DNA from: an uncultured Flavobacteriia bacterium
GTDB taxonomy: Bacteria > Bacteroidota > Bacteroidia > Flavobacteriales > Flavobacteriaceae
Assembly (NCBI GenBank): GCA_946482495.1
Contig: CAMLRV010000053.1
Coordinates: 1-11,258, forward strand
Length of the DNA stretch: 11,258 nucleotides
Direction of reading: 5' to 3'
Under the pieces are notes generated by a model. That model was not told where the DNA came from. It did not search any database and was given only the letters and a program-made list of their open reading frames with translations. Below are positions 7,920-11,117 of this stretch, in pieces; the first letter of the stretch is position 1; each line of letters starts with the position of its first letter. The position numbers and the translations under genes are program-made.

Positions 7920-9311
7920 ATGAATTTAAAAATTAAAATTTTGCTTTTCGGAATCTTAAATATTGGTCTTTTCAGCTGTAGTTCTTCCAAAAGAATTGAC
8001 ACTATAAAACCAGAGCCAACCGACAATGCACCTCTTATTTATAGCAACAAAACTTCTTTAATTTCAATGCCAATGGAAGTGAGCATGAAAGAAATTGAAT
8101 ACCATTTAAATAAAAATTTAAAAGGATTAATTTACAACGATTCCATTTTAAATGACGATAAAACCGAAATGAAAATTTGGAAAACTTCGGACATTAAATT
8201 GACAGAAAAAAATGGAGAAATTGTTTCGGTAATTCCATTAAAAATTTGGGCCAAAATTAAATATGGAACCGAATTCATGGGTTTAAACGATACGAGAGAA
8301 ATTAATTTGAATGGAACTATCACCTTAAATAGTCAAGCGAATTTCGCGAATTGGAAACTAAATACTTCTTCTAAAATTGAAGATTTCGAATGGAGCGAAA
8401 GTCCGAGTATTTTAGTAGCAGGAAAAAATGTTCCAATTACCTATATTATCAATCCGACTTTATCGATTTTCAAAGGAAGAGTTGCTAAAATGATTGACGA
8501 AGCCATCAATAAAAGCTGTGATTTTAAAGAACAAGTTTTTGGTGTTTTAGAAACTATTTCGACACCATTTATGGCAAACGAAGCTTATGAAACTTGGTTT
8601 AAATTAGCACCAACTGAAATTTATAGTACAAATGCCGTGTTGAATGATTCGAAAGTGACCATGAATTTAGGACTGAAATGTCAGATGCAAACTATGATTG
8701 GACAAAAGCCCAAAAATGGATTTGACAAATCTAAAATTGTTTCCAAAGCGGTGACTAAAATTCCATCCGATTTCAATGCATCTGTTGCTGCAGTTTCAAC
8801 TTATGAAAGTGCGAGTAGAATAATGACAAAAAACTTTTTAGGTCAGGAATTTGGTTCAGGTAGAAGAAAAATCACGGTTCAGAAAGTAGATTTATGGTAC
8901 AAAGATGGTAAAATGATTATCGCTTTGGATATGTTAGGTTCTGTAAATGGAACCATTTATTTAACCGGAATTCCAAAATATAATCCGGAAACTAAAGAAA
9001 TTTACTTTGATGAAATGGATTATGTTTTAAATACGAAAGGCATTTTAACCAGAACGGCCAATTGGTTACTTCAAGGTATGATTTTAAATAAAATTAAAGA
9101 AAACTGTAAATATTCTATCAAGTCTAATTTAGATGAAGGAAAGAAAAACATGTTGCCTTACTTAACGAACTATTCACCAATGAAAGGTGTTTTTGTAAAT
9201 GGAAAATTAAACGATTTTGTGTTTGAAAAAATGGAATTGACTGAAAAAGGAATAGTTGCTTTTATCACTTCCACAGGCTCGATGAAGATTTTAATTGACG
9301 GAATGGATTAG
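7920..9311 (+). CDS. DUF4403 family lipoprotein
   Basis: 463 residues. Residues 1-19 are a lipoprotein signal with lipobox LFSC, so Cys20 would be lipidated. The following SSSKR lacks an obvious acidic surface-export signal, which suggests the protein stays on the periplasmic side, although that rule is lineage-dependent. The rest is soluble alternating beta strands with short helices. It matches what I recall of DUF4403 in length (about 450-480) and in having two similar halves: an N-terminal part from about 35 and a C-terminal part from about 225 (WFKLAPTEIY...). The molecular role is not established. A lipid-binding TULIP-like fold has, as I recall, been proposed for this family by remote homology; treat that as unverified. 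The gene stands alone, divergent from the TolC/HlyD operon, and ends in a strong bidirectional terminator. Confidence 0.8.
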   Translation: MNLKIKILLFGILNIGLFSCSSSKRIDTIKPEPTDNAPLIYSNKTSLISMPMEVSMKEIEYHLNKNLKGLIYNDSILNDDKTEMKIWKTSDIKLTEKNGEIVSVIPLKIWAKIKYGTEFMGLNDTREINLNGTITLNSQANFANWKLNTSSKIEDFEWSESPSILVAGKNVPITYIINPTLSIFKGRVAKMIDEAINKSCDFKEQVFGVLETISTPFMANEAYETWFKLAPTEIYSTNAVLNDSKVTMNLGLKCQMQTMIGQKPKNGFDKSKIVSKAVTKIPSDFNASVAAVSTYESASRIMTKNFLGQEFGSGRRKITVQKVDLWYKDGKMIIALDMLGSVNGTIYLTGIPKYNPETKEIYFDEMDYVLNTKGILTRTANWLLQGMILNKIKENCKYSIKSNLDEGKKNMLPYLTNYSPMKGVFVNGKLNDFVFEKMELTEKGIVAFITSTGSMKILIDGMD

Positions 9312-9315
9312 TATA

Positions 9316-9343
9316 TTTACGATTGACGATTTTGGATTTACGT
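9316..9343 (+). repeat. Degenerate 7-bp tandem array A (4 units)
   Basis: Four consecutive heptads begin 4 nt after the DUF4403 stop codon. The first and last are TTTACGA and TTTACGT; the middle two are TTGACGA and TTTTGGA. The period is exactly 7 with no indels. The array occupies the space between the stop codon and the terminator hairpin. There is no coding potential of its own. Confidence 0.6.
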
Positions 9344-9346
9344 TAT

Positions 9347-9389
9347 AAAAAATCCCGTCTCGTTAATAATAATGAGACGGGATTTTTTT
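9347..9389. terminator. Strong bidirectional terminator between the DUF4403 gene and the 88-residue gene
   Basis: A perfect 15-bp stem pairs 9347-9361 with 9374-9388. It consists of a GC-rich TCCCGTCTC core flanked by A on the left and T on the right, with a 12-nt A/T-rich loop. It has a T-tract in both directions, so it can end plus-strand DUF4403 transcripts and minus-strand transcripts of the SCO/DUF420 cluster. The TAA stop of the minus-strand gene (9388-9390) lies at the very edge of the stem. Confidence 0.9.
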
Positions 9390-9654
9390 ATAATGCTGCT
9401 TTTTCTTTTTTCTTTTGTTTTAATCGCCACACGGCATAGAATACCGCAGCAACCAAAATATAAGGGATAGCCATTAAGTAGACAATTCCGTCGTTTACTC
9501 CTTCTGCTGTGGCTTTATTAGCTTCGTTTTGAAGAGAAGCGCGACACATAGCACATTGACTATAAGTAGCAAAAGACAAAAGGCAAAAGACTATAGTTGA
9601 AAACAAAACTTTACTTCCAACTTCTAACTTCCAACTTCTAACTTTACTTAACAT
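9388..9654 (-). CDS. Small CxxC membrane protein of the oxidase-assembly cluster
   Basis: 88 residues. An N-terminal signal or anchor (hydrophobic core about 16-31, ending TYSQ) is followed at once by CAMCRASLQNEAN, giving C34-x-x-C37. One membrane helix follows at about 58-77 (IVYLMAIPYILVAAVFYAVW), then a Lys-rich tail, so the CxxC should face the periplasm and the tail the cytoplasm. It resembles short 'hypothetical' proteins I recall beside SCO and DUF420 in flavobacteria, where CAMCRA and VNDGIVYLM are conserved. Function is unknown; a metal or thiol role is an inference from the CxxC and the neighbours. The ATG overlaps the DUF420 stop by 11 nt, which suggests translational coupling. 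Residues 3-14 and 22-28 are encoded by 7-bp repeat DNA, an unusual origin for a signal peptide. An alternative start at the TTG for residue 17 would exclude the first repeat block. Confidence 0.75.
   Translation of the reverse strand: MLSKVRSWKLEVGSKVLFSTIVFCLLSFATYSQCAMCRASLQNEANKATAEGVNDGIVYLMAIPYILVAAVFYAVWRLKQKKKEKAAL
9571..9591 (+). repeat. 7-bp tandem array B (3 units) inside the 88-residue gene
   Basis: The three units are AAAAGAC, AAAAGGC and AAAAGAC, with exact 7-bp period. On the coding (minus) strand the 21 bp form seven codons, VFCLLSF, within the signal-peptide core. Its start is 42 bp (six heptads) from the start of array C, so the two are in the same 7-bp phase with three non-matching heptads between them. 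Confidence 0.6.
9613..9647 (+). repeat. 7-bp tandem array C (5 units) across the DUF420 stop and the start of the 88-residue gene
   Basis: ACTTCCA and ACTTCTA alternate twice, followed by ACTTTAC; the period is exactly 7. The last unit contains the TAA stop of the DUF420 gene (9644-9646, minus strand). The remaining units are translated in another frame as residues 3-14 of the 88-residue protein. Coding in both overlapping genes therefore runs through repeat DNA. Confidence 0.75.
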
Positions 9655-10225
9655 AATAAGGAGATATCATAATATAAACAACTACACCTGTTACGGCTAC
9701 ATACAACCAAATTGGAAAAGTAATTTTGGCCAATTTTTTATGTTTATCAAATCGTTGAGATAAAGCTCTTACATACGTAATTAATACCATTGGAATAATC
9801 ACTATTGAAAGACAAATATGAGTGGCTAAAATAAACAAATAAATAACTCTTGAACTTCCAACAGCTAGCTTTTCGCTTTCTTCTAATATGGAATTATGAT
9901 TCACATCACCATAAACTGCAGAGATTGAAGTCATATGATAGGCAACATACATTAATAAAAATGCAATAGAACAAGCAATCGCTGTTTTCATTAAGTTCTC
10001 GTGTAACTTTCTATTTCCATTTTTAATTGCCATTACAGCAACACTAAGCAAAACAGCTGTAATTCCGTTAATAGTAGCATAAATTGGAGGTAAAAAACTC
10101 AAAGGTTCAACATCATAACCTAATTTCTTAAGATTCACTCCAAACAAAGCCGCAACAGCTAAAGGAATAATAATTGAAACGGCTGTAATTAACTTGTTGT
10201 ATTTTGTTTCGATATTGTTTTCCAT
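9644..10225 (-). CDS. DUF420 family membrane protein (YozB/CtaM-like), heme-copper oxidase assembly
   Basis: 193 residues with five predicted membrane helices at about 13-31, 46-67, 81-103, 127-151 and 167-188. The family's His residues are present: H75 in KLHENLM, H97 in AYHMTS, H136 in ATHICLS and H162 in DKHKKLAKITFPIWLYVA. The last block with the following VTGVVVYIM is the most recognisable DUF420 signature. Characterised relatives in Firmicutes act in the maturation of heme-copper oxidases; placement between a SCO protein and a periplasmic CxxC protein fits the same job here. The 3' end overlaps the next gene by 11 nt within repeat array C. Upstream lies a 131-nt gap after SCO that contains repeat array D and a weak promoter candidate, so it may have its own transcript. 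Confidence 0.9.
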   Translation of the reverse strand: MENNIETKYNKLITAVSIIIPLAVAALFGVNLKKLGYDVEPLSFLPPIYATINGITAVLLSVAVMAIKNGNRKLHENLMKTAIACSIAFLLMYVAYHMTSISAVYGDVNHNSILEESEKLAVGSSRVIYLFILATHICLSIVIIPMVLITYVRALSQRFDKHKKLAKITFPIWLYVAVTGVVVYIMISPYYVK

Positions 10226-10259
10226 GATTTATCTTTATTTTCTCTTCGATGTTTAACCG

Positions 10260-10267
10260 CAAAAGTG
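10260..10267 (-). promoter_or_regulatory. Weak candidate -7 box for the DUF420 gene
   Basis: On the minus strand this reads CACTTTTG, one mismatch from TAnnTTTG, 34 nt upstream of the DUF420 ATG. No -33 box stands out at the normal distance. It is offered because the 131-nt spacing after SCO leaves room for a separate promoter; read-through from SCO is equally possible. Confidence 0.25.
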
Positions 10268-10309
10268 CAATGCATTCACAAGGTTACCTAAAGTTTAACA
10301 TCCTTTTTT

Positions 10310-10351
10310 ACTTTTTACTTGTTACTTTTTACTTTTGCCTTTTCACTTGGC
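10310..10351 (+). repeat. 7-bp tandem array D (6 units) just 3' of the SCO gene
   Basis: Three units are ACTTTTT or ACTTTTG and one is ACTTGTT; the last two, CCTTTTC and ACTTGGC, are degenerate. The period is exactly 7. A further imperfect heptad (CTTTTTT) precedes it at 10303. On the SCO sense strand the array begins 5 nt after the TAA stop (10357-10359). Its words closely resemble array B read on the opposite strand. Confidence 0.7.
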
Positions 10352-10356
10352 TCTTT

Positions 10357-10986
10357 TTATTCTTCTAATAATTTCTTAATATCTTCCTTGATTGCATCAA
10401 TTCCTGCTTGTTCTAAACCGTCGTAATATAAAATTGGATTCCCGAATTTGTCTTTTCTACATCTTATATTTCCTTCTTTATCAATTAATGCGAATAATCC
10501 AGAATGTTCAAATCCGCCTTGAACGTTTTCGTTTTTCCCTGCAAAGATATTGAATCCTTTGTTGGCTAAGTTCATAATGTAATTATAATCACCCGTTAAG
10601 AAATGCCAATTCGGATGTTTTACTCCTAAGTTGTTTGCGTGTTCTTTTAACTTGGCAGTTGTATCATTTTCTGGATCGATGGTGATCGAAGCAATTCCGA
10701 AGTTTAAATCACCATAAAAAGCTTCTTGCAATTGCAACATATTTTGATTCATTTTCGGGCAAATTGTTGGGCATGAAGAAAAGAAAAACTCTACAACATA
10801 TACTTTTCCATCATAATCTTTATTAGAAATTTTTTTTCCGTTTTGATCTGTTAATTCAAAGTCTGGTACTTTTTTACCTAAATTCTCTAAATCACTTTTT
10901 TTGAATCGTTCAGTTAATTCCTTTACTGTCCAAATTCCGAACAATAAAATGATAAATGTTATTCCAATGTATGAGTTTTTTTTCAT
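10357..10986 (-). CDS. SCO1/SenC/PrrC-family copper chaperone for cytochrome c oxidase
   Basis: 209 residues. A single N-terminal membrane anchor lies at about 6-22 (YIGITFIILLFGIWTV), with the thioredoxin-fold domain facing the periplasm. The copper ligands are all present: CxxxC as C72-P-T-I-C76 in FFFSSCPTICPKM and the distal His161 in GGFEHSGLFALID. The TIDPENDT block at 102-109 is also typical. SCO proteins deliver copper to, or reduce the cysteines of, the CuA site of oxidase subunit II. It lies directly upstream of DUF420 and the CxxC protein, supporting an oxidase-assembly cluster. Upstream, 122 nt separate it from the partial gene at the right edge; I found no good promoter there. 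Length and motifs are normal. Confidence 0.94.
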   Translation of the reverse strand: MKKNSYIGITFIILLFGIWTVKELTERFKKSDLENLGKKVPDFELTDQNGKKISNKDYDGKVYVVEFFFSSCPTICPKMNQNMLQLQEAFYGDLNFGIASITIDPENDTTAKLKEHANNLGVKHPNWHFLTGDYNYIMNLANKGFNIFAGKNENVQGGFEHSGLFALIDKEGNIRCRKDKFGNPILYYDGLEQAGIDAIKEDIKKLLEE

Positions 10987-11082
10987 TGTTTATTTATTTT
11001 TTAAACAAATAGCGCATAGTATTTATTTGAAAAGCAGCTTCGCATAATTTAAGAAAAAATAGTTCTCTAATTTTTGCTCAAG
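10987..11082. other. Intergenic stretch upstream of SCO
   Basis: A/T-rich spacer between array E and the SCO start. It contains CGCATA twice (near 11011 and 11041) and the short palindrome AAGCAGCTT at about 11031-11040, but no TAnnTTTG box on the minus strand and no hairpin terminator. Nothing further is supported. Confidence 0.4.
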
Positions 11083-11117
11083 ACTGAACACTAAAAACTG
11101 ATTACTGACTACTGTTT
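11083..11117 (+). repeat. 7-bp tandem array E (5 units) at the stop codon of the right-edge gene
   Basis: Units follow ACTGANN: ACTGAAC, ACTGATT and ACTGACT, with ACTAAAA and ACTGTTT as variants. The period is exactly 7 across 35 bp. The TAG stop of the partial right-edge gene (11109-11111, minus strand) lies inside the array, so its final codons and stop are made of repeat DNA. Confidence 0.7.

What the first reader, a model, noticed from the sequence alone, without database searches (positions are those of the whole stretch)
9316..11117. Five degenerate tandem arrays, all with an exact 7-bp period but different words
Arrays lie at 9316-9343, 9571-9591, 9613-9647, 10310-10351 and 11083-11117. 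Each keeps a strict 7-bp register without indels, yet the words differ (ACGATTK, AAAAGRC, ACTTCYA, ACTTTTT, ACTGANN). Within an array about half the positions stay fixed (often ACT) while the others drift. This is unlike ordinary slippage microsatellites, where units are identical, and unlike dispersed palindromic repeats. The period seems conserved while the sequence does not, which suggests a templating or slippage process, or a protein that reads 7-bp steps. The nearest named parallel I know is the heptanucleotide STRR family of filamentous cyanobacteria. I recall similar tracts between genes in other flavobacteria but cannot cite a description.
Basis: seen in the sequence. Interest (0 to 1): 0.72.

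Follow-up and report, generated by a model that had tools for sequence, protein, structure and literature searches.

The report
Gene-end AGT heptamer repeats in Flavobacterium
Short stretches just outside many bacterial genes repeat a few letters such as AGT every seven bases, often exactly five times and usually pointing away from the gene, which suggests an unrecognised family of small DNA elements rather than ordinary copying stutter.

Summary
In 272 kb of intergenic DNA from relatives, 39 arrays had period 7, 9 had period 8, and at most 2 any other period from 4 to 15 except the harmonic 14. More than the period is kept: a short core recurs (AAG, AGT and others) while the bases between vary. 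AGT runs lie close to gene ends and read outward in 97 of 110 scored cases, 56 of 68 in data fetched after the rule was noticed. In four near relatives AGT runs stop sharply at five copies: 62 loci with four, 104 with five, 21 with more. Words are dispersed and clade-specific: GAGCCAAGTAAAAAG has 62 copies in F. bernardetii, none in 12 of 16 genomes. Orthologous gaps carry different words. Two window arrays lie in the coding start of a small ORF. Best reading: a dispersed family of polar short repeats spread by slippage and short template copying. Selection on the core is suggested for five-AGT elements only, and is not seen over all runs. Function is unproven; Ku and reverse transcriptase are not required.

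The parts
11083..11117 (-). Five-AGT element (spacers AGTC, AATC, TTTT, GTTC on the - strand) at the 3' end of the gene upstream of SCO1; that gene's TAG stop (11111-11109) lies inside the first units
   Evidence: frame inferred from homologous gene ends in L001, L002, L006
10310..10356 (-). AAGTAAA-type array starting directly after the SCO1 stop (10359-10357); begins with AAAGAGCCAAGTG, whose GAGCCAAGT word is shared with F. bernardetii, F. difficile, F. urocaniciphilum and F. terrigena
9613..9647 (-). Five-AGT array (TAGA/TGGA spacers alternating), starting at the DUF420 stop codon and encoding the charged N-terminus (KVRSWKLEVGSK) of the next ORF
9571..9591 (-). Pyrimidine-rich array (- strand GTCTTTT/GCCTTTT) encoding the hydrophobic stretch of the same N-terminus, inferred signal peptide
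9316..9343 (+). ATTTACG-type array directly after the TAG stop (9309-9311) of the DUF4403 gene, reading outward; an array of the same type lies at the same place in L006
9388..9654 (-). Small ORF (88 aa, CAMC motif after an inferred signal peptide, no Pfam match) whose 5' end is built of arrays
9644..10225 (-). DUF420 protein gene
   Evidence: PF04238
10357..10986 (-). SCO1/SenC gene
   Evidence: PF02630

Best explanation
The arrays belong to a dispersed family of short polar repeats at gene ends. A unit is a short core (AGT or AAG in most arrays studied here; others exist) plus variable bases, at 7-base or in some species 8-base steps. Typical AGT members have five cores (31 bp, or 35 bp at step 8), lie within a few bases of a stop or start codon, and read away from the gene. 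Shown: period enrichment, core with variable spacers, gene-end position, polarity of AGT runs, five-copy limit in several genomes, clade-specific dispersed words, word replacement at orthologous sites. Inferred: new words arrive by short template-switch or conversion copying primed on the shared core, and runs grow or shrink by slippage in whole units. More speculative: the core is kept by selection as a nucleic-acid site read in 7-8-base steps.
For: Period spectrum. AGT p7/p8 polarity: 41 of 42 in the sets where the rule was noticed, then 16 of 21, 10 of 10, 30 of 37. Wider array set: stop side 53 AGT-rich: 9 ACT-rich, start side 7: 33, Fisher p 5e-12. Position: 28 of the 37 scored runs begin within 13 bases of a gene end (my count). 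Five-copy limit: four near relatives (G001, G002, G003, G005) 62 / 104 / 21 loci with 4 / 5 / >=6 AGTs; the chance of going on falls from 0.67 to 0.17. Same at step 8 in F. cauense (hand tally: 7 with four, 22 with five, 6 with more, one of these overlapping another on the opposite strand). 53 distinct five-AGT elements hold 59 different spacers; the last base of the third spacer is C in 4% against 30-36% in the other three, so units are not equivalent. Dispersal: GAGCCAAGTAAAAAG 62, 116, 8, 6 copies in four related species, 0 in 12 others, 1 copy in 60 further Bacteroidota. 129 orthologous gaps of F. bernardetii and F. difficile: arrays in both 16, one only 19, neither 94. Four alignable five-AGT orthologue pairs: core 58 of 60 kept, spacers 49 of 64.
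Against: Core conservation is weak. Choosing elements by AGT in one species hides about half of the core changes; corrected, the five-AGT result is p about 0.02. Over all alignable AGT runs of three or more, 25 of 208 core and 43 of 207 spacer positions changed, which after that correction shows no excess conservation. Two of the four five-AGT pairs lie inside called ORFs, and a fifth with wholly replaced words was left out. Core-free word-sharing polarity was weak in F. bernardetii (228 same, 192 opposite) and absent in F. cauense (6: 6), though clear in F. difficile (121: 28) and G042 (21: 5). Polarity has 13 exceptions of 110, and runs inside called ORFs or without flanking ORFs were not scored. 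The five-copy limit is absent in other array-rich genomes (G014, G020, G021, G025). Some arrays clearly expand (at least 200 bp in F. difficile), as slippage would. AGT is not the commonest core everywhere. No transcript, protein or phenotype data; ORFs came from a crude caller.
Confidence: 0.42

Rival explanations
1. Plain 7-base replication slippage: the polymerase slips most readily by about 7 bases (hypothesis credited to Mrazek et al. 2007), arrays arise anywhere and survive only where length and sequence are free, i.e. gene ends and signal peptides; words drift by point mutation.
For: Period 7 dominates across unrelated words; homogeneous arrays and large expansions exist; several arrays fill whole gaps and stop at coding sequence; core positions are not clearly better conserved than spacers over all runs. 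The polymerase-contact idea is reported in PMC4692102 (passages seen).
Against: Does not predict the five-copy cut-off, outward polarity, ordered spacers, clade-specific dispersed 15-mers, or neighbouring units that differ at 3.1 of 7 positions.
Confidence: 0.27
2. Arms of intercistronic RNA (or DNA) hairpins: an AGT/purine arm after the stop pairs with an ACT/pyrimidine arm before the next start, acting as terminator or mRNA stabiliser.
For: Opposite-strand neighbours within 250 bp are inward: AGT runs 6 of 6, AAG runs 13 of 14. Strong self-pairing in 21% of 29 and 19% of 79 co-directional array gaps (both sides, one side) against 4% of 120 sampled gaps without arrays; some near-perfect hairpins.
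Against: About 80% of co-directional array gaps lack it. Single word copies show no inward bias (AAGTAAA 50: 44, AAGTTGG 6: 6). In two-arm cases such as L235, L236 and L257 both arms carry AGT runs with non-complementary words (by reading). Several start-side arrays alone fold hardly at all.
Confidence: 0.12
3. Translation signals: pyrimidine-rich, G-poor leaders before starts (for example S1-binding), as proposed for TAACTGA repeats.
For: Ordinary leaders are also somewhat G-poor (skew -0.06 to -0.23); start-side arrays are C/T-rich in sense.
Against: Four of five window arrays and 112 of 185 sampled arrays are on the stop side; ordinary post-stop DNA has no matching G excess (-0.08 to +0.06).
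Confidence: 0.1
4. End addition at breaks by a template-carrying enzyme (reverse transcriptase or Ku/LigD end joining), which would give inward-facing AGT arrays on both sides of a break.
For: Predicts the observed order whatever the gene directions.
Against: Array-rich F. bernardetii (G001) and G042 have neither a Ku match (24 of 198 genomes do) nor an RVT_1 match (84 of 198 do); a very divergent enzyme is not excluded.
Confidence: 0.03

Closest known systems
TAACTGA direct repeats of marine Beggiatoaceae, Cyanobacteria and five Bacteroidetes (MacGregor 2015, PMC4679880; outline, abstract and sections 8 and 10 read)
   Same: Heptamer register, mostly intergenic, near gene ends; on the other strand the word is CAGTTAT (rotated), i.e. 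it also carries AGT; indels mostly in 7-nt steps between two Cyanothece strains.
   Different: There one fixed word repeated exactly, and single-base variants are rarely repeated; in BOGUAY mostly just before start codons. Here many words share only a core, post-stop sites are at least as common, AGT polarity is tied to gene ends, and five copies are preferred in several genomes.
Over-represented heptameric simple sequence repeats in bacteria (Mrazek et al. 2007, not held; seen only as cited in PMC4692102) and GGGAATC / GGGGA(C/T)T repeats of Xanthomonas and Nostoc (PMC4692102, passages only)
   Same: Excess of period 7 over other periods; partly degenerate units; intergenic; length and sequence change between close species at the same gene pair.
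   Different: G-rich quadruplex-type words there, AT-rich AGT/AAG words here; no core-and-spacer rule, polarity or five-copy rule in the passages I saw.
STRR heptanucleotides of Calothrix and other filamentous cyanobacteria
   Same: Period 7.
   Different: Different phylum, defined words.
REP / BIME / MITE palindromic repeats (recalled)
   Same: Dispersed, at gene ends, clade-specific.
   Different: Units not palindromic; no transposase link was looked for.

Membership tests
Simple sequence repeat (microsatellite) | Units near identical | tested here: not met
   Mean Hamming distance of adjacent units 3.13 of 7 over 1345 pairs in 131 arrays (arrays merged from period 7, 14 and 21 tracts, so register breaks may add to it). 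Some arrays are homogeneous.
Simple sequence repeat (microsatellite) | Unit number falls off smoothly (no preferred number) | tested here: not met
   Cut-off at five AGTs in G001, G002, G003, G005, G007, G016, G026; smooth decline in G014, G020, G021, G025.
TAACTGA repeats | Exact TAACTGA direct repeats | tested here: not met
   None in the window by reading.
TAACTGA repeats | Mostly within several bases upstream of a start codon | tested here: not met
   Window: four of five arrays are at stops; sampled arrays 112 on the stop side, 73 on the start side.
STRR (cyanobacterial heptanucleotide repeats) | Defined heptanucleotide word in a filamentous cyanobacterium | tested here: not met
   Window is Flavobacterium by its nearest relatives; words vary.
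Intergenic hairpin / terminator repeat | Self-complementary arms | tested here: inconclusive
   Enriched, but in about 20% of co-directional array gaps only.
Intergenic hairpin / terminator repeat | Terminates or stabilises transcripts | not testable with these tools
   No RNA data.
Protein-binding iterated site | Fixed core conserved against variable spacers between species | tested here: inconclusive
   Five-AGT elements: core 58 of 60, spacers 49 of 64 kept, bias-corrected p about 0.02; all AGT runs: 25 of 208 core, 43 of 207 spacer positions changed, no excess after correction.
Protein-binding iterated site | A cognate protein | not tested
   No candidate sought; only Ku and RVT_1 were profiled.

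The most novel reading that the evidence does not exclude
Five-AGT elements are functional gene-boundary marks: a five-module protein (or pentamer) recognises five AGT cores spaced 7-8 bases with free spacers, in one orientation relative to the coding region, so that Flavobacterium chromosomes carry directional marks at the outer edges of genes. The period and the core number are what selection sees; the words are free to turn over.
Probability: 0.17. Interest if true: 0.88.

Novelty: new variant of a known kind. Interest (0 to 1): 0.62.

Why it matters
Why heptamer repeats are over-represented in bacteria has, as far as I saw, only a guess about polymerase contacts as an answer. A core with free spacers, a five-copy limit and polarity set by gene ends are countable properties that pure slippage does not predict, so the question becomes testable. 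In array-rich species these elements fill many intercistronic gaps and even build N-terminal coding sequence such as inferred signal peptides, so they matter for gene annotation, operon spacing and the evolution of exported proteins.

Tried and rejected
Stop-codon insulation (a period coprime with 3 puts a stop in every frame): all three frames closed in 53 of 112 stop-side arrays in sense and 47 in antisense, no real difference. Composition alone: ordinary post-stop DNA has no G excess. Reverse transcriptase and Ku: no match in two array-rich genomes. Hairpin as the sole cause: arms often not complementary. Core-free polarity test: weak in some genomes. Alternation of two words (units two apart closer than neighbours, 574: 366 pooled) comes from F. 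difficile (285: 61); F. bernardetii shows none (205: 205). Position inside ORFs: 10 of 23 period-7 tracts in the first 120 bases (expected 12%), but control periods are raised too (8 of 21 at period 8, 6 of 25 at 11) and several starts are doubtful, so I make nothing of it. Literature: nine searches listed no paper on AGT-cored polar arrays in Flavobacterium; most subscription papers are not in that library. Not run: E. coli and other non-Bacteroidota controls, same-species strain comparison, signal-peptide prediction.
Full report
What the window is. The nearest named relatives of the window's SCO1 gene are Flavobacterium bernardetii, F. terrigena and F. urocaniciphilum (86-89% protein identity). 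No genome is held for the window itself, so genome-scale tests used relatives: 62 loci around SCO1, 26 whole genomes reached through those loci, 198 genomes of the phylum, and sampled stretches.

The observation. Two are strong, one moderate, two short. No other period from 2 to 20 gives a comparable tract in the window, apart from 14. 9613-9644 is a perfect 14-base repeat of two alternating words. The arrays at 9613 and 9571 are inside the 5' end of a small ORF (9388-9654, - strand): one encodes a charged stretch, the other the hydrophobic stretch of what looks like a signal peptide (inferred, no predictor was run).

Is period 7 special? In 400 kb of F. bernardetii (threshold 16) there were 11 tracts of period 7, 8 of 14, 5 of 21, and at most 4 of any other period; Markov simulations gave 0-2 tracts in all. 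A scan for degenerate arrays in 272,435 intergenic bases gave 39 at period 7, 18 at 14, 9 at 8, and 0-2 at every other period from 4 to 15. With the exact pattern AGT x4, 26 genomes gave 1420 hits at spacing 7, 451 at 8 and 151 at 6 (my sums). Abundance is patchy: G004 and G022 have 1 hit each, G021 has 205. In the phylum sample 145 of 198 genomes have at least one. G007 (F. cauense), G010 and G018 have more at spacing 8 than at 7, so 7 is not universal.

Which core? AGT is not the only one. In sampled DNA, four-copy trinucleotide runs at spacing 7 were commonest for AAG (40), ATT (30) and GAA (21), with AGT 17; these overlap, since an AAGT array counts for both AAG and AGT. In the genome search the TGA control beat AGT in 4 of 26 genomes. 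I followed AGT because it recurs in the window and allows strict pattern counts; the rules below are firm for AGT only.

Same place, different words. Between the DUF420 gene and the small ORF, 18 of 62 loci carry a period-7 or -14 tract, with words such as AAGTTGG, AGAATAT, AAGTCAA, AAGCCGA or TTCTTGT. At the end of the gene before SCO1 the window and F. terrigena have AGT-N4 words, F. bernardetii has AAGAGCCAAGTAAAA, and F. urocaniciphilum and F. difficile have none (by reading). Of 129 orthologous gaps of F. bernardetii and F. difficile (flanking proteins mostly 90-98% identical where printed, a few down to 47%; a few of the stretches had been picked for holding arrays; the low threshold lets in some T-rich runs), 16 have arrays in both, 10 and 9 in one only, 94 in neither. 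In one gap a TATGCTT array faces an AGT-N4 array right after the same stop codon; in another the same words fill at least 200 bases in F. difficile.

Anatomy. Neighbouring units differ at 3.1 of 7 positions on average (131 arrays, 1345 pairs), so many arrays are strings of different words sharing a core. Alternation of two words is marked in F. difficile (units two apart closer in 285 cases, neighbours in 61) but absent in F. bernardetii (205: 205). In 53 distinct elements with five AGTs there are 59 different 4-base spacers; C is 0-9% in spacer positions 1-3 (flanks 4-19%), and the last base of the third spacer is C in 4% against 30-36% in the others, where T takes its place. So the units are not equivalent. 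The window's 11083 array follows this plan, with TTTT as its third spacer.

Five copies. From hits to four, five, six and seven AGTs the number of loci of each length follows. In four near relatives that share the GAGCC words (G001, G002, G003, G005), 62 loci have exactly four, 104 exactly five, 21 more. Free slippage predicts steady decline. The same cut-off appears in G007, G016 and G026, and at spacing 8 in F. cauense (7 with four, 22 with five, 6 with more; my tally of the listing). It is absent in G014, G020, G021 and G025, where the decline is smooth. Over all 26 genomes 270 loci have four, 274 five, 128 more.

Polarity. Within a gap, AGT runs (three or more, spacing 7 or 8) read on the + strand at the left end and on the - strand at the right end, whatever the direction of the genes: they point away from the gene beside them. 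Sets in which the rule was noticed: 41 of 42. Held-out sets, criterion fixed: 16 of 21 and 10 of 10. A third set, 40 stretches that I picked from the listings for holding five-AGT runs, scored (runs of four or more) by nearest gene end: 30 of 37. Together 97 of 110; held-out alone 56 of 68, p 6e-8. Not scored because inside a called ORF, or without two flanking ORFs: 26 runs, 7, 7, 10 of 47. In a wider set, post-stop arrays are AGT-rich 53: 9 and pre-start arrays ACT-rich 33: 7. The four window arrays at stops fit (by reading); the 9571 array is inside the ORF and cannot be scored. Against this, a core-free test on shared words was weak in F. bernardetii (228: 192) and null in F. cauense (6: 6), though clear in F. 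difficile (121: 28) and G042 (21: 5) and slight in G102 (10: 5).

Dispersal. GAGCCAAGTAAAAAG occurs 62 times in F. bernardetii, 116 in F. difficile, 8 in F. urocaniciphilum, 6 in F. terrigena and not at all in 12 other family members; 1 copy in 60 further genomes of the phylum. Independent slippage at dozens of sites would not hit the same 15 bases. Words must be copied between sites or inherited from copies.

Selection on the core? In four orthologue pairs of five-AGT elements 58 of 60 core bases and 49 of 64 spacer bases are the same. Picking elements by AGT in one species hides about half of the core changes; corrected, p is about 0.02. Two of these pairs lie in called ORFs, and a fifth alignment (words wholly replaced) was left out. 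Over all alignable AGT runs of three or more, counted from both species, 25 of 208 core and 43 of 207 spacer positions changed; uncorrected p 0.017, but with the same correction there is no excess conservation. So selection on the core is a suggestion for five-AGT elements and not a general result.

Mechanism. I favour dispersed polar repeats whose words spread by short core-primed copying and whose length changes by unit slippage; selection on the core is possible. Polarity and the five-copy limit are not explained by slippage, by stop-codon content, by composition, or by hairpins alone (about 20% of co-directional array gaps). Ku and reverse transcriptase are not required, since two array-rich genomes have no match to either. 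A reader protein with 7-8-base steps remains open and is the boldest reading.

Known work. Heptamer over-representation and a polymerase-contact guess are reported in PMC4692102 (passages). TAACTGA repeats in Beggiatoaceae, Cyanobacteria and five Bacteroidetes, with a suggested translational role, are in PMC4679880 (outline, abstract and two sections). That paper mentions other heptamer repeats in Gramella, Aequorivita and Elizabethkingia gaps. Nine searches listed no account of core, polarity or five-copy number, within an open-licence library only.

Noticed in passing
window 9347-9388: Perfect inverted repeat with A and T tracts (AAAAAATCCCGTCTC ... GAGACGGGATTTTTT) between the convergent DUF4403 gene and the small ORF, a likely bidirectional terminator; several relatives have different stems at the same place.
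   Followed up: no
L068 (G001:C1:115981-116123): Another ORF whose called N-terminus is built of an AAGTAAA array followed by its near complement CTTTTTACTTG, i.e. charged then hydrophobic stretch, as in the window.
   Followed up: partly
L186, L187 (G001:C1 near 466450 and 484520): ATTTACG/ATTTGGG arrays that run on into a shared stretch beginning GTGAAG, perhaps a longer dispersed repeat.
   Followed up: no
L063-L082 and L183-L202 (F. bernardetii): Separate dispersed near-palindromic repeat around CTGAAACAAGTTCAGAATGACA, its core 15-mer at 12 places in 800 kb.
   Followed up: no
G001, G005, G012, G019 and others (listing): Period-6 relatives of the form AGTCNC repeated (CAGTCTCAGTCGC), so the AGT core also occurs at spacing 6.
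   Followed up: no
G014:C33:307146-309014 (listing): The same AGT-containing 21-mer recurs at multiples of 231 bases (six places), pointing to a long tandem repeat of 231-bp units.
   Followed up: no
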